Below, in pieces: positions 9,619 to 25,489 of a stretch of DNA of 32,824 nt. Position numbers and translations under genes: made by a program. Within the stretch, counting starts at the first letter, position 1. The number at the start of each line of letters is the position of its first letter. The notes below the pieces were generated by a model that was given only the letters and a program-made list of their open reading frames with translations, did not search any database and was not told where the DNA came from. Source of the DNA: Candidatus Cacconaster stercorequi. Its GTDB lineage: Bacteria; Bacillota; Clostridia; Oscillospirales; Oscillospiraceae. The stretch lies in NCBI GenBank assembly GCA_018064925.1, contig JAGHUH010000046.1, forward strand, positions 1 through 32,824. Reading direction: 5' to 3'.

Positions 9619-9695
9619 GTGCCCGTAGCTCAGTTGGATAGAGCGTCAGACTCCGACTCTGAAGGCCGCTGGTTCGACTCCAGTCGGGCATACCA
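9619..9695 (+). tRNA. tRNA-Arg (anticodon CCG), CCA encoded
   Basis: A full cloverleaf can be drawn: acceptor GTGCCCG/CGGGCAT (one G-U pair), D stem GCTC/GAGC, anticodon stem TCAGA/TCTGA with loop CTCCGAC, five-base variable loop, T stem GCTGG/CCAGT with loop TTCGACT, discriminator A and encoded CCA (9693-9695). The anticodon at 9653-9655 is CCG, reading the Arg codon CGG. Confidence 0.96.
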
Positions 9696-14150: not shown

Positions 14151-14246
14151 GAGGATGGCGGTGAAAGGCGTCTGCCGGTGTGTGCGTATGGCGCGGCACC
14201 GGAGATCGTCAATCATGATCTGATCTATGCATAATGGACGCATAGG

Positions 14247-14272
14247 CGGCGAGGAGAAATCCTCGCCGTTTT
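14247..14272 (+). terminator. Intrinsic terminator of htpG
   Basis: CGGCGAGGA and TCCTCGCCG pair around a GAAA tetraloop, followed by TTTT. It also marks the left border of the AT-richer block. A smaller hairpin CTATGC/GCATAG lies directly upstream (14225-14245). Confidence 0.92.
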
Positions 14273-14293: not shown

Positions 14294-14322
14294 TTGATAA
14301 ATGCTATGTCATTTGTTATAAT
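14294..14322 (+). promoter_or_regulatory. Promoter of the XRE/PrsW gene block
   Basis: TTGATA (14294-14299) and TATAAT (14317-14322) with 17-bp spacing. It is the only clear promoter seen for the genes up to 17679. Confidence 0.82.
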
Positions 14323-14351
14323 ATATGTAATTGTATGGGAGGAGTATTGCG

Positions 14352-14573
14352 ATGGAATTCTCTGAAAAAGTAAAAACCGTACGGAAATTAGTGAATTTCT
14401 CTCAAGAGGACATGGCTCATCAGTTGGGTGTTAGCTTTGCGACCGTGAACCGGTGGGAAACTGGAAAGTCCAAGCCGAGCAAATTGGCGATCCGGGCGTT
14501 TGAGGAATTCTGTAAAACGAAAGCGATTATTCTGGATCCTGATGGATCCGCAGCCGACTCCGGCAGTGTTTGA
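14352..14573 (+). CDS. Mini XRE-family DNA-binding protein
   Basis: The product has 73 residues and is almost only a Cro/CI-type helix-turn-helix: VRKLVNFSQEDMAHQLGVSFATVNRWETGKSKPS. A short tail (ILDPDGSAADSGSV) replaces any sensor domain. The ATG at 14352 follows GGGAGGAG; an upstream TTG at 14331 lies on top of that site. It heads the AT-richer block and is 49 bp before a membrane protein gene, so it probably regulates this block. Its codon use is clearly AT-richer than in htpG. Confidence 0.88.
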   Translation: MEFSEKVKTVRKLVNFSQEDMAHQLGVSFATVNRWETGKSKPSKLAIRAFEEFCKTKAIILDPDGSAADSGSV

Positions 14574-14622
14574 AATCATTATGTTTCCGCCAACAAAACG
14601 GATGAAGAAAGGATGGACATAG

Positions 14623-15291
14623 TTGATTAAAATACATGAATTACTGGCTTTTGCCGTTTCAGCGGCAGCTTTCGGCTATGGCGCGTTCCATCTTTTCCGA
14701 AAAGGAATACCGAAGTTCTTTCGGTTGTATGTATGCGCCGCCGGATGTTATATGCTGGAAGAACTGTGGGTGATTGTCAACTCGCTGCTGGGAAACGGTA
14801 GTCAGGATGGTCTGGTAACGGTTCGCTTGTTTGGTTTTTTCGGATGCCTGTGCTTTATGCTTTCCGCTAATGCCAACGAATTCGATAAGGTCGTTGACGA
14901 GGGCAAAAGCAAAAATGCGAAGCTGCTGGCAATCATTGCGCCGACCGTTCTGCTCGCGTTTTATGCGCTCTATGCGTTTTCACCGATGAATACAAAATCG
15001 GCGGCGGTTATCGTGATCGGATTTCTCAGCATCTTCCCCGCGCTGCCTGCGTCCTATTTCAACCTAAAGCATTTGCTGCTGCCGCCGGACGAGGTGGGCT
15101 TTTTGAAGGGCACGAAGCAGATTGATATTCTCGCACTGGCCTTTTATGCGGCAAATTATGTGTATCCTTTGATGGATCTGCACTGTCCGAAAACGGTCAT
15201 GAGCGTATATGATCTGCTCCTTGCCGGGATGCTTTTCGGAATAATCGCAGCGTGCAGAAAGGGGGCTGTCAAATGGGAAGCCTTCATCTGA
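14623..15291 (+). CDS. Multi-pass membrane protein of unknown family (about 7 TM)
   Basis: The product has 222 residues starting with TTG at 14623, after AAGGA at 14609; a stop codon directly upstream rules out extension, and the next ATG would remove two helices. Hydrophobic segments lie at residues about 6-24, 32-56, 62-83, 98-118, 125-145, 167-184 and 191-211. There is no recognised catalytic motif. The last 19 bases overlap the start of the PrsW-type protease gene, indicating translational coupling and a likely complex. It could be a substrate receptor or stabiliser for the protease; that is inference. Confidence 0.78.
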   Translation: MIKIHELLAFAVSAAAFGYGAFHLFRKGIPKFFRLYVCAAGCYMLEELWVIVNSLLGNGSQDGLVTVRLFGFFGCLCFMLSANANEFDKVVDEGKSKNAKLLAIIAPTVLLAFYALYAFSPMNTKSAAVIVIGFLSIFPALPASYFNLKHLLLPPDEVGFLKGTKQIDILALAFYAANYVYPLMDLHCPKTVMSVYDLLLAGMLFGIIAACRKGAVKWEAFI

Positions 15292-15911
15292 TGCTTTTTA
15301 TATGTCTTGCAGTTCCGCTGTCCATGATGCTCTTTGTGTTCAGCGGACGGTCAAGGGCGCTTCTCGGCTTTCTGCTGACAGGGATTTTTATGTGCCTTTT
15401 TGCCGGAGAAATCAATGGACTGATCCGGAGTGGATCCGAACTGCCTATGCGATTTCTGACTGTAAATATTACGCCCATTGTTGAGGAAATACTGAAAGCA
15501 ATCCCAATCGTTTTTATTGCATTTCTGATCAGACCGAACCGTCAGTTCCTATTGGAATGCTCCATTGCTGTCGGCGTGGGGTTTGCAACGATGGAAAACA
15601 CCTGCCTGCTTTTTGACTCTGCGTCTGCACTCTCCGCGGGGATGATCATAGCGCGCGGATTCGGCGCGGGCATGATGCACGGCGTCAGCACGCTGGCAGT
15701 CGGATATTCCATGACCATTGTCAGCTCGGACAGGAAGCTTTCCTACACAGGAACGGTGGCTGCGCTTTCGGCGGCAATCATTTATCATTCGATCTATAAC
15801 ATCATGGTACAGTCGGCGTATCCGCTGCTGGGTATTCTTCTGCCGCTCGTGACCTATATACCGATTGTGATCATCATGAGTAAAAAATGGAGTAGCCACA
15901 AGCAGGGTTGA
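15273..15911 (+). CDS. PrsW-family intramembrane (glutamic-type) protease
   Basis: The product has 212 residues with about 7 membrane helices. PrsW motifs appear in order: PIVEEILK with E71, E72 and K75; VGVGFATMENTC with E108 and N109; ARGFGAGMMHG with R128 and H136; and IIYHSIYN with H172. PrsW cleaves anti-sigma factor RsiW in B. subtilis; the family belongs to the Rce1/CPBP-like glutamate proteases. The ATG at 15273 follows AAAGGGGG; an in-frame ATG at 15252 is less likely. No sigma/anti-sigma pair is in the window. Two single-pass surface proteins downstream are possible substrates. Confidence 0.85.
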   Translation: MGSLHLMLFICLAVPLSMMLFVFSGRSRALLGFLLTGIFMCLFAGEINGLIRSGSELPMRFLTVNITPIVEEILKAIPIVFIAFLIRPNRQFLLECSIAVGVGFATMENTCLLFDSASALSAGMIIARGFGAGMMHGVSTLAVGYSMTIVSSDRKLSYTGTVAALSAAIIYHSIYNIMVQSAYPLLGILLPLVTYIPIVIIMSKKWSSHKQG

Positions 15912-15952
15912 TTCGTATAACTATTTGACACTTCAAAAACGGGAGAACAGTT

Positions 15953-16747
15953 ATGAAAAAACAAAGCATATCACGAATGATTCTTTGTGTTGCCGTCATC
16001 GCGGCGCTATTGGCAGGATCAAGCATCACAGCGTTTGCGGAATCACCGGATTATGTCATTCACAATTATATGGAACTTGAACAATTTGCCTGTTCCGTCA
16101 ATTCCGGGAATTCCTATGAAGGGAAAGTGATAGCGTTGGCGGACGATTTCGGCACAGAGGAAGGAACACTCACAACCCCTATCGGATTAGACCATCCTTT
16201 TGACGGTACTTTTGACGGTAATGGGCGCTCCGTGAAGCTGAATATCGTATCTGATACTCAGCTTGATTTCGCCGGAATGTTTGGCGGGATCTCCAAAGAC
16301 GCGGCTGTCGAGAATCTGACCGTTACGGGAAATGTTGCGGGAGATGCGTATTGTGTCGGCGGTATATGCGGGACGAATTTCGGCAGAGTTGTCAACTGCA
16401 CCAATAACGCAGGCGTTACAGGAGAGGAATTCGTTGGCGGCATTTGCGGAATTAATGGCAATGGCGCTATTGTCAACTGCATCAATAACGGAGATATTGC
16501 AGGAAAATCGCAGGTGAACGGTATTTGCGGAGATAATCAATACGGTACAATCGTAAACTGCTCCAACAGCGGAAAAGTTGACAGAGAAGCCGATTCCGCC
16601 TCCCTCACTGGCTCGGTGTTGTCTGAGGGCAGCCTTGCCATTGTCTCCGCGGTGCTGGGGATCGCAGTGGGCATCGCCGGGACGCTGCTGGTGATGAAGA
16701 AAAAGAAACCCGCCCCGGCTGCCGGCGGCAGCGAAGACGGCAAATAA
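15953..16747 (+). CDS. GLUG-repeat surface protein, signal peptide plus C-terminal membrane anchor
   Basis: The product has 264 residues. Residues 1-29 are a signal peptide (LCVAVIAALLAGSSITAFA). After a beta-rich lead-in (IGLDHPFDGTFDGNG) come three GLUG-type repeats: VGGICGTNFGRVVNCTNN, VGGICGINGNGAIVNCINN and VNGICGDNQYGTIVNCSNS. GLUG repeats form beta-solenoid-like surfaces in adhesins and peptidases. The C-terminus is a membrane helix (LAIVSAVLGIAVGIAGTLLVM) and a KKKK tail, so the protein is exposed outside and anchored once. The start at 15953 has GGGAG 8 nt upstream. It lies 41 bp after the PrsW gene. Its stop codon overlaps the ATG of a PrsW relic. Confidence 0.85.
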   Translation: MKKQSISRMILCVAVIAALLAGSSITAFAESPDYVIHNYMELEQFACSVNSGNSYEGKVIALADDFGTEEGTLTTPIGLDHPFDGTFDGNGRSVKLNIVSDTQLDFAGMFGGISKDAAVENLTVTGNVAGDAYCVGGICGTNFGRVVNCTNNAGVTGEEFVGGICGINGNGAIVNCINNGDIAGKSQVNGICGDNQYGTIVNCSNSGKVDREADSASLTGSVLSEGSLAIVSAVLGIAVGIAGTLLVMKKKKPAPAAGGSEDGK

Positions 16748-16794
16748 TGGAAAATACCTGTCTTCTTTTTGATTCCGCATCTGCTCTCTCTGCA
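16747..16794 (+). pseudogene. 48-bp relic of a second PrsW gene
   Basis: This stretch encodes MENTCLLFDSASALSA, identical to residues 107-122 of the intact PrsW at 15591-15638. The DNA differs at 9 of 48 positions and every change is a silent third-base change. After residue 16 the reading continues for 13 unrelated codons to a TGA. It must come from a diverged but once functional PrsW paralogue, now lost by deletion or recombination. The remaining bases to 16914 (about 120) show no recognisable gene. Confidence 0.8.
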
Positions 16795-16914
16795 GAGTTG
16801 ATACATAAAACAACGGGTAGCTATGCTTCGTGCTGATTTGTATAAACCGGTGAAAGACATTGCGGCCACGAAGCTTGCGGCACTATCTATAAAGAATAGG
16901 AGAATCTGAAAATC

Positions 16915-17679
16915 ATGAAAAAGATGAATATTTGGGCGATTACGCTCTGCGTCGCCGTACTCACGGTGCTGCTCTCTGTACCGGGCATTTCTGCCTTCGC
17001 AGCCGATGATGTTCCGCAGTGGGTGGGACCTGATGATGTAGAGATCCATCACGGCGATGTTACCAATTATGTTTCGAAAGACGGGACATATTCGGCGGAA
17101 ATCCCGGCAGACGGGATCGCCTGGATCTACTACAGCACCTCTTTTGACAGATTCTGGATAGGCATTGATAATCCGGACGGCGTTTTTGAAGAGGGAAGCC
17201 GGTTCCATGTACGCTGGTCCGCCGATGATTCATCGGGGCACGAAGATATCGGCATCATCTCGGATCGGAGCGACAGAAGAGTAAATGATTTGACCCTTTT
17301 GGAGATGGGGGTGGAACGCCCCGACGGCACGGCATACCGGGTGCTTGATCGGAAGGTGTCGCTGTACCTGCAGCCTGCCGACTGCGTGGATGACCGGATG
17401 GCATTCTCCGTGTATGCCGATGAAGGCTATGATGAGATAATGGATACAAGAATTGTAAGAATGATGACTCCGGACGGAGCAGAGACGACACTAATTGACC
17501 TTCGGCTGACGCATCCGGACACTCAGCTGCATTTTGAGTGGAAAACATCGCTTTGGGCATCCGCCTTCAGCGAGCATGAGCCGCTGATTCTGTGTCTGGG
17601 AGCGGCAGTTGTTCTTGCGGTTACGACCGTGATCCTTGTCAGACGAAAGAAAAAAGGGACTTCACGGACGAGCCGCTGA
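16915..17679 (+). CDS. Secreted, C-terminally membrane-anchored protein of unknown function
   Basis: The product has 254 residues. Residues 1-29 form a signal peptide (LCVAVLTVLLSVPGISAFA) strikingly like that of the GLUG protein upstream. The external domain (about residues 30-215) is acidic and beta-rich with no repeat or catalytic motif I recognise. A single membrane helix (LILCLGAAVVLAVTTVILV) is followed by RRKKKGTSRTSR, so the tail is cytoplasmic. The ATG at 16915 follows AGGAG at 16898 with rather wide spacing. The shared architecture with the GLUG protein suggests both act together or both are protease substrates. Confidence 0.75.
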   Translation: MKKMNIWAITLCVAVLTVLLSVPGISAFAADDVPQWVGPDDVEIHHGDVTNYVSKDGTYSAEIPADGIAWIYYSTSFDRFWIGIDNPDGVFEEGSRFHVRWSADDSSGHEDIGIISDRSDRRVNDLTLLEMGVERPDGTAYRVLDRKVSLYLQPADCVDDRMAFSVYADEGYDEIMDTRIVRMMTPDGAETTLIDLRLTHPDTQLHFEWKTSLWASAFSEHEPLILCLGAAVVLAVTTVILVRRKKKGTSRTSR

Positions 17680-17767
17680 CATTCTGCCTGGATGTGAGAA
17701 AAGAATGTGGCTGAATACGCCCACATACAAGAGTGGTTATAGAATGCAGGATAGGAGCTGCCATTTT

Positions 17768-17836
17768 ATGGCTGAGTATTTGAAACTTGCTTCCACTCTC
17801 TATATGGATTCAATAGCAAACAAGAACATTTTTTAG
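17768..17836 (+). CDS. Possible 22-residue peptide or gene remnant
   Basis: ATG at 17768 to TAG at 17834-17836, with AGGAG 10 nt upstream, encodes MAEYLKLASTLYMDSIANKN plus two residues. It may be a small peptide or the truncated start of a lost gene. It is supported only by the ribosome site and position before a terminator. Confidence 0.3.
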   Translation: MAEYLKLASTLYMDSIANKNIF

Positions 17837-17855
17837 CATGTCAAGCGGTAAAATT

Positions 17856-17896
17856 AACCCGCCGAAGAGGAAATGAGTTCCTTTTCGGCGGGTTTT
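17856..17896 (+). terminator. Intrinsic terminator at the right border of the AT-richer block
   Basis: AACCCGCCGAA (17856-17866) and TTCGGCGGGTT (17884-17894) form an 11-bp stem, with GAGGAA/TTCC pairing inside, then TT. Confidence 0.88.
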
Positions 17897-18083: not shown

Positions 18084-19553
18084 ATGGCAGAGAGAAAGAA
18101 AAAAAGAACGATAGGACGCGCGATCCGATTGGCGGGATGCGCCGTTTTGCTGCTTGCCCTTGTGATCGGAGGCATGAGCCTGATCAAGGGGTATTTTATT
18201 TTGTCGCCGCAGGTACACCTGTCCGTGCAGGGCAGTCAGAAGCAGGACATCGACGCGTTTTCAAAATATACCGATGAGGGCGCCGTGGCCATGTTGGGCA
18301 AAACGGATCTGAGCGATCAGATTAAGACGGAGGGCAGCGTCAATACAAAGGTGCCCGGCAGCTATATCGTTACATATTCCCTTGATTATAAGGGCAAGCA
18401 CTATACGCAGCAGCGCACCGTTCGGGTGGTGGACCGCGACGCGCCGGAGCTGAAGCTGAAGGGTGAGGACACCGTGGTGGTGTCGCGCATGGAGCTGTTT
18501 GACGAGCCGGGCTATACGGCGAAGGATCGCTGTGACGGCGACCTGACGGACTGCGTGACGGTGGAGCAGCAGAAGAAGGATGCCACAACCTATCGGGTGG
18601 TCTATCAGGTGGCGGACAAGGCAGGCAACATGGCGGAGGCCGTCCGCACGCTGGAGATTCGGGATATCGTGCCGCCGGAGCTGGAGCTGCGGGGCGAGGA
18701 GCATATGTTTGTGCCGCGGGGCGACCGCTTTACGGACCCGGGCGCCGTGGCCACGGATGACGCCGACGGCGACCTGACCGAGGCCATCACCTGTACCGGT
18801 ACGGTGGACACCGACGCGGTGGGGGATTATACCCTGCGTTACAGCGTCAGCGACAGCGCGGAGAACCGCGCCGAGGTCAAACGCACGGTGACGGTGTACG
18901 AGGAGAGCGCGGACAACCCCAATCGCATCTACCTGACCTTCGATGACGGCCCCACCGAGAAGGTCACGCCGCATATACTGGATGTTCTGGAGAAGAATCA
19001 TATTAAGGCTACCTTCTTCATTCTGAAGTATTCCGATGAGGACAAGCCCATTTTGCAGCGCATGATCAACGCGGGGCACACCGTGGGCATCCACGGCTAT
19101 TCCCACGATTATGCCACCATTTATTCCTCCGAGAAGGCGTTTATGAACAGCATTCAGACCCTCCACGATCAGGTGCAGAAGGACTTCGGCTATGACGCCA
19201 AGGTGATCCGTTTCCCCGGCGGCAGCTCCAATACCATCAGCGCGGACTATAAAAAGGGCATCATGACCTGCCTGACGAAGCGGGTGGAGCAGGAGGGCTA
19301 CACCTACTTTGACTGGAATGTGGACAGCAGCGATGCCAACGGCAACAATGTGGATGCCTCCACGATTTACGAGTCTACCACCCAGGGCCTTTTTAAGGAC
19401 GGGAACAATGTGGTCTTGATGCACGACAGCTACTATAAGACCACCACCGCCGATGCGCTGCAGAAGATCATCGACTACGGCCACAAAAACGGCTACTCCT
19501 TCCTGCCCATTACCGCCGACACGACGCCGTGCCACCACGGCGTGGCAAATTGA
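18084..19553 (+). CDS. Polysaccharide (peptidoglycan) deacetylase with Ig-like repeats
   Basis: The product has 489 residues. A basic N-terminus and one membrane helix (about residues 14-37) anchor it. Three Ig-like modules follow (about 40-125, 126-200, 205-275), each with the DxxPPELxLxG-type start seen in DUF5011/HYR domains. The NodB catalytic domain begins near residue 280: YLTFDDGPT with D287 and D288, HTVGIHGYSHD with H337 and H341, RFPGGSSN at 376, and VVLMHDS near the end. It removes N-acetyl groups from wall glycans, giving lysozyme resistance. The ATG at 18084 follows GGAGG; earlier in-frame codons lie in the promoter. Confidence 0.92.
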   Translation: MAERKKKRTIGRAIRLAGCAVLLLALVIGGMSLIKGYFILSPQVHLSVQGSQKQDIDAFSKYTDEGAVAMLGKTDLSDQIKTEGSVNTKVPGSYIVTYSLDYKGKHYTQQRTVRVVDRDAPELKLKGEDTVVVSRMELFDEPGYTAKDRCDGDLTDCVTVEQQKKDATTYRVVYQVADKAGNMAEAVRTLEIRDIVPPELELRGEEHMFVPRGDRFTDPGAVATDDADGDLTEAITCTGTVDTDAVGDYTLRYSVSDSAENRAEVKRTVTVYEESADNPNRIYLTFDDGPTEKVTPHILDVLEKNHIKATFFILKYSDEDKPILQRMINAGHTVGIHGYSHDYATIYSSEKAFMNSIQTLHDQVQKDFGYDAKVIRFPGGSSNTISADYKKGIMTCLTKRVEQEGYTYFDWNVDSSDANGNNVDASTIYESTTQGLFKDGNNVVLMHDSYYKTTTADALQKIIDYGHKNGYSFLPITADTTPCHHGVAN

Positions 19554-25142: not shown

Positions 25143-25489
25143 GAATGATCCCCCTTTAGAGGAAGTATTTCCATTTCCGGGGAAATTATGACAAGGAATG
25201 CAAAAAGTGCCCGACACCTTTGCAGATAGAAAAATCGCAGAGAAGAAAGGAGTATTTTGAGGAAGCCCCTCACATAAGCGCCATGTGCCTGCCCCAAAGC
25301 GGGGCAGGATAACGAGGAGGAGAGAGAATCGAACCTTCGGCGGATGCTCTCCCGCGTACCGGACGCGTGACACAGCCGACAAATATGCGGGCAACCGCAG
25401 AACAAAGGGGCTGTGACCGGGAGCAAGAGGCAAATGATCTGCGCGTTTGTCCTTTTGATAGAATTTGAATTTATCAGGAGGAATAGGAT
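25143..25489. other. Divergent intergenic region between DUF421 gene and glmS
   Basis: It holds the glmS ribozyme (about 25271-25430) and the glmS ribosome site. I could not find convincing promoter elements for either gene in 25143-25270; both must nevertheless start there. Confidence 0.6.
25271..25430 (+). ncRNA. glmS ribozyme/riboswitch (glucosamine-6-phosphate-activated)
   Basis: Conserved parts are all present: AAGCGCC at 25276-25282 with the self-cleavage site between 25277 and 25278, the P1 hairpin CCTGCCCC/GGGGCAGG, then ACGAGGAGGAGAGAG, TCGAACCTTCGGCGGATG and CAACCGCAGAACAAAGGGG near 25392-25410. The RNA cleaves itself when glucosamine-6-phosphate is bound, and the mRNA is then degraded, giving feedback control of glmS 60 bp downstream. 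The exact 3' end is approximate. Confidence 0.95.

What the first reader, a model, noticed from the sequence alone, without database searches (positions are those of the whole stretch)
14294..17896. AT-richer cassette: XRE regulator, multi-pass membrane protein, PrsW protease and two single-pass surface proteins
Seen: one promoter, small intergenic gaps, a 19-bp overlap between the unknown membrane protein and PrsW genes, and two downstream proteins with near-identical signal peptides (LCVAV...SAFA-like) and C-terminal membrane helices with basic tails. Composition differs clearly from the flanking high-GC genes and the block is bounded by terminators. Known: PrsW cleaves single-pass membrane proteins in regulated intramembrane proteolysis, but its usual partners are a sigma/anti-sigma pair, which is absent here. 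Inference: this is a self-contained signalling or surface-remodelling system in which PrsW, perhaps with the unknown membrane protein as partner, cuts the two surface proteins, under control of the mini XRE protein.
Basis: partly seen in the sequence, partly recalled or inferred. Interest (0 to 1): 0.75.

Follow-up and report, generated by a model that had tools for sequence, protein, structure and literature searches.

The report
PrsW protease with receptor-like partner module
A small gene cassette in a gut bacterium pairs a membrane-embedded protease with an undescribed seven-helix partner and two surface proteins that carry a shared tail signal, which suggests a new kind of tail-cutting system for placing proteins on the cell surface.

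Summary
The cassette is real: 48.9% GC against 58.5% around it, flanked by terminator-like hairpins, with a 19-bp overlap between a membrane-protein gene ("P2") and a PrsW gene. P2 matches no Pfam family (18 of 18 members) and models confidently as a seven-helix bundle. P2 and this PrsW type are a fixed pair: 14 of 14 full-length P2 genes found without a PrsW query have PrsW directly downstream. Both window surface proteins end in a C-terminal signature, [AGT]-S-x-[FL]-(S/G)-x-G-S/N, helix, basic tail. A profile of 26 tails from other genomes finds only these two in the window (E 4e-11 and 1e-5; next 0.39). The signature sits on unrelated ectodomains beside P2-PrsW pairs and is rare in genomes without the pair. 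My reading: P2-PrsW is a tail-processing or sorting protease for such proteins, working like rhombosortase or myxosortase but built on PrsW. Cleavage is inferred, not shown; co-distribution outside the training genomes is modest (P 0.007). The XRE gene is not conserved with the pair. A remnant of a second PrsW gene lies between the two surface-protein genes.

The parts
14244..14271 (+). terminator-like hairpin that bounds the cassette on the left
14294..14322 (+). best promoter-like site (TTGATA-17-TATAAT, 11 of 12), upstream of the XRE gene
   Evidence: the region as a whole is not richer in such sites than shuffles
14352..14573 (+). 73-aa XRE-type HTH protein; not conserved with the pair
   Evidence: Pfam HTH_3 2.9e-11; match in 1 of 24 relative loci
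14623..15291 (+). P2: 222-aa seven-helix membrane protein of an undescribed family, partner of PrsW
15273..15911 (+). PrsW-family glutamic intramembrane protease, 212 aa, motifs EEILK, FATME, HSIYN
15953..16747 (+). surface protein 1: signal peptide, GLUG repeats, C-terminal signature, helix, KKKK tail
16595..16708 (+). C-terminal signature of surface protein 1 (GSVLSEGSL, helix, KKKK)
16747..16807 (+). remnant of a second PrsW gene (about 20 codons, 12 of 57 ungapped bases differ, 16 residues in a row identical)
16915..17679 (+). surface protein 2: signal peptide, unknown ectodomain, C-terminal signature, helix, RRKKK tail
17545..17655 (+). C-terminal signature of surface protein 2 (ASAFSEHEPL, helix, RRKKK); the weaker match
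17856..17894 (.). terminator-like inverted repeat (17-bp arms) that bounds the cassette on the right

Best explanation
The cassette is a horizontally acquired tail-processing module. Shown: P2 and PrsW are a fixed, overlapping gene pair, and the two surface proteins share a tripartite C-terminal signature (motif, helix, basic tail) with many unrelated proteins next to such pairs. Inferred: the surface proteins are exported by Sec and lose their N-terminal signal peptide, so the C-terminal helix is their only anchor. PrsW, whose known relative makes the site-1 cut of RsiW, then cuts at or beside the [AGT]S-x-[FL] motif at the outer edge of that helix. This frees the ectodomain or passes it to another anchor. 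P2, a seven-helix receptor-like protein with a conserved inner face, holds, presents or gates the protease. It works like rhombosortase or myxosortase, with a PrsW enzyme and an added partner.
For: Pairing: 14 of 14 full-length P2 genes found without a PrsW query have PrsW directly downstream, as has one P2 cut by its contig end (L057); in 20 of 20 junctions read, the genes overlap by 1-19 bases. Motifs EExxK, FxxxE, H and HxxxN invariant in 16 of 16. Signature: with whole genomes left out in turn, P0004 scores 26.4 and P0005 13.8 bits, the only two hits above 10 bits in the window; a profile of 26 tails from other genomes gives E 4.4e-11 and 1.1e-5, next 0.39. In the window's own genome the only matches that span the motif at E<=1 are these two (both are training sequences). 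Ectodomains with the signature are unrelated: LRR_5, GLUG, PG_binding_1, List_Bact repeat, beta-helix, PET-hydrolase-like (10 scanned, 9 with a hit). Adjacency: signal-plus-C-terminal-anchor genes are 15 of 116 genes within two genes of a pair and 1 of 152 further out, Fisher P 2e-5; 13 of 33 loci against 6.0 expected, 0 of 5000 permutations. Of the 16 genes so picked, without regard to the motif, 14 carry it or a close form by eye, L023 (GTAFGQGS) among them, which was in no profile. Co-distribution: motif-spanning matches (E<=1e-5, from model position <=6) in 0 of 385 pair-negative class genomes. G448, with 4 pairs, holds 15 matches at E<=1e-5, 13 on contigs without a detected pair. Transfer: low GC; the window PrsW groups with a horse-faeces Clostridia copy (100/99), not with the three copies of its own genus.
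Against: No cleavage is shown. The signature model was trained on neighbours of the pair, so hits in training genomes are circular. In genomes that gave no training sequence, 3 of 18 pair-positive against 2 of 575 pair-negative have it (P 2e-4); but one of the 3 (G519) has only a broken P2 piece and no PrsW match. Counted as pair-negative, it leaves 2 of 17 against 3 of 576 (P 0.007) or, with the 56 pair-negative relatives added, 4 of 632 (P 0.009). G464, G493 and G519 thus carry the signature without a PrsW match; they may be incomplete. 20 of 33 pair loci have no anchored surface gene within two genes by the mechanical rule, among them the closest relative L009. P0005's match is weak. An ordinary PrsW (L136) also has a C-terminally anchored protein beside it, without the motif. 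In four relatives the pair sits with an ECF sigma factor; L007 and L008 there end in a QTGD tail, and L034 has no such protein within its stretch. The extra 16 rows were found with a model that included the window tails.
Confidence: 0.52

Rival explanations
1. Regulatory reading: P2-PrsW is a sensor plus site-1 protease that acts on a regulator (an anti-sigma factor elsewhere, something unlinked here). The surface proteins are the regulated output, not substrates.
For: L007, L008, L034 and L035 carry an ECF sigma gene (Pfam-confirmed for L007 and L008), a small two-helix protein, P2 and PrsW. B. subtilis PrsW is reported as site-1 protease of anti-sigma RsiW (passages of PMC4183432). Two-component genes lie beside the pair in L032, L070 and L072 (Pfam for L070 and L072).
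Against: No sigma or anti-sigma gene in this cassette. It does not explain why unrelated ectodomains share the same motif at the helix edge beside the pairs.
Confidence: 0.22
2. The shared tail is only the ordinary membrane anchor of a donor lineage. The genes travel together on a transferred island and PrsW acts on something else.
For: Low GC and patchy distribution; G464, G493 and G519 have the motif without a PrsW match.
Against: 0 of 385 pair-negative class genomes have a motif-spanning match at E<=1e-5. The other pair-negative matches at E<=1e-5 begin at model position 9-15 (G252, G302, G537, G600, G616), apart from G054, which matches from position 2 but lacks the motif by eye.
Confidence: 0.18
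3. One reading: PrsW cuts the two surface proteins as input of a signalling circuit controlled by the XRE protein.
For: The XRE gene is 49 bp upstream of P2 on the same strand with no terminator-like site on that strand between them.
Against: XRE matched in 1 of 24 relative loci; the tails left in the cytoplasm are about 16 and 12 residues.
Confidence: 0.05
4. A decaying island without present function.
For: A second PrsW gene is reduced to 61 nt.
Against: All five genes are open; the PrsW active-site motifs are intact and invariant. In the remnant 10 of 12 differences are at third positions, so both copies were probably under selection before the loss.
Confidence: 0.03

Closest known systems
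Rhombosortase / GlyGly-CTERM (PMC3237569, passages read)
   Same: tripartite C-terminal tail shared by otherwise unrelated secreted proteins; an intramembrane protease subfamily co-distributed with it; target and protease encoded by consecutive genes in some cases; several targets per enzyme
   Different: serine protease of the rhomboid family, widespread among but rare outside Proteobacteria; here PrsW with a seven-helix partner, mostly in Clostridia; different motif; co-distribution here is weaker
Myxosortase MrtX / MYXO-CTERM and MrtJ / JDVT-CTERM (PMC11980579, passages read)
   Same: glutamic intramembrane protease with EE and HxxxN motifs acting on a C-terminal tail; MrtJ forms a two-gene unit with its single target
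   Different: CPBP family, not PrsW; MYXO-CTERM has an invariant cysteine before the helix, proposed to be lipidated, which is absent here; no P2-like partner in the passages read
PrsW-RsiW of Bacillus subtilis (passages of PMC4183432)
   Same: PrsW family protease
   Different: substrate there is an anti-sigma factor; the window protein scores 28 bits against NCBIfam's PrsW equivalog cut-off of 225 and comes with P2
PrsW-dependent polymorphic toxins (PMC3482391, passages read)
   Same: PrsW proposed to process secreted proteins
   Different: there PrsW is an N-terminal domain fused to the toxin; here it is a stand-alone 212-aa protein and the proposed targets are separate, C-terminally anchored proteins
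Sortase / LPXTG (as described in passages of PMC3237569)
   Same: C-terminal motif, helix, basic tail on surface proteins
   Different: no LPXTG in either window protein; the protease here is membrane-embedded

Membership tests
PrsW family (PF13367) | match over Pfam gathering score | tested here: met
   66.8 bits, cut-off 23.5
PrsW family (PF13367) | conserved motifs EExxK, FxxxE, HxxxN/D (motif names recalled) | tested here: met
   invariant in 16 of 16 aligned proteins, as HxxxN
PrsW equivalog of NCBIfam (NF033739) | cut-off 225 bits | tested here: not met
   28.2 bits
PrsW anti-sigma circuit | sigma/anti-sigma genes beside PrsW | tested here: not met
   none in the cassette; sigma genes present in L007, L008, L034, L035
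C-terminal sorting/processing systems (GlyGly-CTERM kind) | tail of motif, helix, basic cluster shared by proteins otherwise unrelated | tested here: met
C-terminal sorting/processing systems (GlyGly-CTERM kind) | tail and protease co-distributed over genomes | tested here: inconclusive
   untrained pair genomes 2 of 17 against 3 of 576, P 0.007 (3 of 18 against 2 of 575 if G519 counts as pair-positive); three genomes with tail but no PrsW match
C-terminal sorting/processing systems (GlyGly-CTERM kind) | target and protease encoded side by side in some genomes, several targets per enzyme | tested here: met
   G448: 15 tail matches, 4 pairs
C-terminal sorting/processing systems (GlyGly-CTERM kind) | protease cuts the tail | not testable with these tools
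   needs an experiment
Rhombosortase | rhomboid family protease | tested here: not met
   P0003 matches only PrsW models at E<=1
Myxosortase (CPBP) | CPBP family protease; invariant cysteine in the target motif | tested here: not met
   no CPBP match at E<=1; no cysteine in the motif before the helix of P0004 or P0005 (P0005 has one inside the helix)
Sortase substrates | LPXTG-type motif before the helix | tested here: not met
   tails of P0004 and P0005
Microbial rhodopsin / GPCR (for P2) | seven-helix fold | tested here: inconclusive
Microbial rhodopsin (for P2) | retinal lysine in the membrane part of helix 7 (recalled) | tested here: not met
   residues 192-211 have no lysine or arginine; the segment bounds were set by eye
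PrsW-type polymorphic toxin | PrsW domain fused to a toxin domain | tested here: not met
   stand-alone 212 aa

The most novel reading that the evidence does not exclude
A new class of C-terminal protein-sorting system, mostly in gut Clostridia: a PrsW glutamic intramembrane protease with an obligate, undescribed seven-helix receptor-like subunit recognises an [AGT]S-x-[FL]-(S/G)-x-G-S/N tail signal, so that cutting (release or re-anchoring) of surface proteins is gated by a sensed signal. The same pair serves anti-sigma circuits in related lineages, linking sorting and signalling by one ancestry.
Probability: 0.33. Interest if true: 0.88.

Novelty: new variant of a known kind. Interest (0 to 1): 0.71.

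Why it matters
In the passages read here, PrsW is described as a site-1 protease for an anti-sigma factor or as a domain of toxins. If the reading holds, the family also has a dedicated surface-protein branch with a fixed partner; all 16 named loci are metagenome-assembled or uncultured genomes, several titled as horse faeces or rumen. That gives a testable substrate signal for an otherwise orphan protease, a first function for an unnamed membrane protein family, and a way to predict surface proteins in these genomes. It would add another unrelated enzyme type to the rhomboid, exosortase and CPBP tail-processing systems.

Tried and rejected
Viral or plasmid origin: a scan of viral contigs with the PrsW alignment gave 62 pattern matches and no relative; no match in plasmids; two unannotated records of the phage collection at about 30% identity, not followed. 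P2 as the membrane part of a histidine kinase: two-component genes lie beside the pair in L032, L070 and L072, but hhalign of P2 with the membrane part of the L070 and L072 kinases gave probability 0.1. P2 as an AgrB relative: one weak Pfam hit (E 0.025, below cut-off), not repeated by any of 18 members at E<=0.01. P2 has no match in solved-structure sequences at E<=1. Foldseek gave no match at E<=0.001; the rows are mainly rhodopsins and GPCRs. P0005's helix gave a weak NCBIfam hit to GG_III-CTERM (12.2 bits, cut-off 22); not taken up. Lysine-only tails: pair-negative hits such as L108, L110, L115, L119 and L120 lack the motif by eye and were rejected as members. G054 (L107) passes E<=1e-5 from position 2 but lacks the motif by eye; it is in the 4 of 632 figure and not in the 2 of 575 or 3 of 576 figures, which cover the class and G448-family searches only. 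A published cleavage site of RsiW to compare with the motif was not found. A structure of P0005 (single sequence) had mean pLDDT 44 and was not used. Searches for a printed account of a PrsW tail-sorting system or a PrsW seven-helix partner: (listings; passages of four listed papers read); none seen in that library. Rows left out of the adjacency count: L021 (PrsW fragment), L054, L057, L058, L064, L076 (fragments or cut by contig ends), and L012, which is the same locus as the longer L071; near-duplicates (L074/L075; L010 and L067 from one contig) were kept, and the P2 position in L007 is approximate. One search had wrong coordinates for L006 and L016; one search replaces it. On rechecking, confidence was lowered from 0.55 to 0.52 and the novel reading from 0.35 to 0.33 because G519 cannot be counted as pair-positive; the two main rivals were raised a little for the same reason.
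Full report
What is there. The finding lies in a 3.6-kb block of five genes on the + strand: an XRE-type regulator (14352-14573), a membrane protein here called P2 (14623-15291), a PrsW-family protease (15273-15911), and two proteins with a signal peptide and one C-terminal helix (15953-16747 and 16915-17679). The 19-bp overlap of P2 and PrsW is exact. The block has 48.9% GC against 58.5% for the rest of the window and is its lowest 3.6-kb stretch; third-position GC is 0.51-0.59 in the five genes against 0.85 and 0.79 in the two neighbours measured. Hairpins bound it at 14244-14271 and 17856-17894 (the second has only four T and is not in the terminator list). The best promoter-like site, 14294-14322, matches 11 of 12 bases, but the region has 6 such sites where shuffles give 5.4. 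The two signal peptides share 15 of 29 residues (alignment), so 'near-identical' is too strong.

A lost second PrsW. Between the two surface-protein genes lies a 61-nt piece of a second PrsW gene (16747-16807; alignment score 72, best of 300 shuffles 49). Over 57 ungapped bases 12 differ, 10 of them at third positions, and 16 residues in a row are identical. The two copies therefore probably diverged under selection before one was lost. That each copy belonged with its own surface protein is inference.

P2 and PrsW are a fixed pair. A scan of genome contigs with PrsW gave 16 loci. P2 lies directly upstream in 15; the sixteenth, L021, is a PrsW fragment. Because that search began from PrsW, I also searched with P2. 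All full-length P2 genes found that way and not already known have PrsW directly downstream: 5 of 5, 5 of 5 and 4 of 4, together 14 of 14. A P2 gene cut by its contig end (L057) has PrsW too. Three broken or truncated P2 pieces (L058, L064, L076) have none by tblastn, and one (L054) is cut on the downstream side. In 20 of 20 junctions read the genes overlap by 1-19 bases, in 13 of them by exactly 13. Six ordinary PrsW loci of related genomes (L136-L140, L142) have no P2 match within the 2-3.6 kb held; five of them were put in a tree and form a separate group (100/99; long branches make the root unsure). The motifs EExxK, FxxxE, H and HxxxN are invariant in 16 of 16. The protein passes the Pfam PrsW cut-off (66.8 against 23.5 bits) but is far below the NCBIfam equivalog cut-off (28 against 225).

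The surface proteins share a tail signal. Many loci have, next to the pair, proteins with a signal peptide and a C-terminal helix with a basic tail. By a mechanical rule such genes are 15 of 116 genes within two genes of the pair and 1 of 152 further away (Fisher P 2e-5); 13 of 33 loci have one, against 6.0 expected and 0 of 5000 permutations. Twenty of 33 have none by that rule; it misses some (for example L067 and L074, read by eye). Of the 16 genes picked by the rule, 14 carry by eye the motif just before the helix, or a close form: [AGT]-S-x-[FL]-(S/G)-x-G-S/N, for example GSVLSEGSL in surface protein 1, ASAFSEHEPL in surface protein 2, GSVFGEGS in L015, ASVFSKGN in L068, and GTAFGQGS in L023, which was in no profile; L008 and L016 lack it. 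With whole genomes left out in turn, the two window proteins score 26.4 and 13.8 bits and are the only hits above 10 bits in the window. A profile of 26 tails from other genomes gives E 4.4e-11 and 1.1e-5, next 0.39; 16 of those rows were found with a model that included the window tails. The second protein is the weaker member. Ectodomains with the tail are unrelated: LRR_5, GLUG, peptidoglycan-binding, List_Bact repeats, beta-helix, PET-hydrolase-like (10 proteins scanned, 9 with a Pfam hit). No NCBIfam tail model reached its cut-off on them.

Does the tail go with the pair? A 12-row tail profile (A5) was searched in 26 pair genomes, 60 relatives, 391 class genomes and 196 genomes of another family. 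I counted matches at E<=1e-5 that begin at or before model position 6. Class: 3 of 6 pair-positive, 0 of 385 pair-negative. Other family: 4 of 6 with a P2 match, 2 of 190 without (G464, G493). Relatives: 1 of 4 pair-positive, 1 of 56 pair-negative (G054, which lacks the motif by eye; pair status there rests on a PrsW search). Several pair-positive genomes gave training sequences, so the fair comparison is untrained ones: 3 of 18 (G163, G447, G519) against 2 of 575 (P 2e-4). But G519 has only a broken P2 piece and no PrsW match. Moved to the other side it leaves 2 of 17 against 3 of 576 (P 0.007), or 4 of 632 with the relatives (P 0.009) (genomes that occur in two searches were not merged). In the window's genome the only motif-spanning matches at E<=1 are the two cassette proteins; the third is partial, E 0.107. 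Genome G448 has four pairs and 15 tail matches at E<=1e-5, 13 of them on contigs without a detected pair, so the signal is not just a neighbour effect. Against the reading, G464, G493 and G519 have the motif but no PrsW-family match.

A second setting. In L007, L008, L034 and L035 the pair follows an ECF sigma gene (Pfam-confirmed for L007 and L008) and a small two-helix protein; in L008, L034 and L035 a second small protein follows, and in L008 and L035 a large secreted protein. The tails of L007 and L008 are QTGD-like, not the signature; L035's protein runs off the stretch. There the pair may do the classical site-1 cut. The window type could be a branch turned to surface proteins.

Most likely mechanism. 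Shown: pair, shared tail, neighbourhood, partial co-distribution, signs of transfer. Inferred: export, then cutting by PrsW at the motif at the outer edge of the helix, gated or presented by P2, with release or re-anchoring. The short cytoplasmic tails (about 16 and 12 residues) make a released signalling fragment unlikely. The XRE gene matched 1 of 24 relative loci, so control by it is at best local.

Compared with what is known. Rhombosortase/GlyGly-CTERM (passages of PMC3237569) and myxosortase (passages of PMC11980579) show the same logic with other proteases. PrsW is reported for an anti-sigma factor (passages of PMC4183432) and in toxins as a fused domain (passages of PMC3482391). No account of a PrsW tail-sorting system or of a seven-helix PrsW partner was seen in the listings; most papers of subscription journals are not in that library. 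I file it as a new variant of a known kind: it works like a tail-processing system but is not a member of the rhomboid, CPBP or sortase families.

Noticed in passing
window 16747-16807: 61-nt remnant of a second PrsW gene, 10 of 12 differences at third positions; evidence of an older two-copy locus.
   Followed up: yes
L007, L008, L034, L035: Relatives of the pair lie with an ECF sigma gene, a small two-helix protein, P2 and PrsW; a second small protein follows in L008, L034 and L035, and a large secreted protein in L008 and L035 (in L007 such a protein is divergent from the sigma gene). The small protein is a candidate anti-sigma factor and PrsW substrate; the two scanned (L008, L034) reach no Pfam cut-off.
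   Followed up: partly
L032, L070, L072: Two-component genes lie beside the pair; in L070 and L072 (Pfam His_kinase and HATPase_c) a kinase with a several-helix membrane part and a response regulator directly follow it, in L032 they precede it (by eye). The membrane part is not detectably related to P2.
   Followed up: partly
L018:128-610: An XRE domain fused to sigma-70 region 4, two genes upstream of a P2-PrsW pair; the gene between looks by eye like a membrane-anchored serpin.
   Followed up: no
L074 and L075: A GLUG/C-terminal-tail protein gene overlaps that of a 1,580-aa secreted protein just upstream of the pair in two genomes.
   Followed up: no
L136:499-1395: A lipoprotein-like protein with a C-terminal helix and basic tail beside an ordinary PrsW gene, without the tail motif.
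   Followed up: partly
records MT838012.1 and MT835688.1: Unannotated human-faecal records in the phage collection with PrsW-like frames at about 30% identity.
   Followed up: no
window 25266-25425 and 9619-9692: glmS ribozyme and a tRNA gene (Rfam).
   Followed up: no
window 18084-19553: Polysaccharide deacetylase with surface Ig-like domains (Pfam) directly downstream of the cassette; high GC, so probably native.
   Followed up: no
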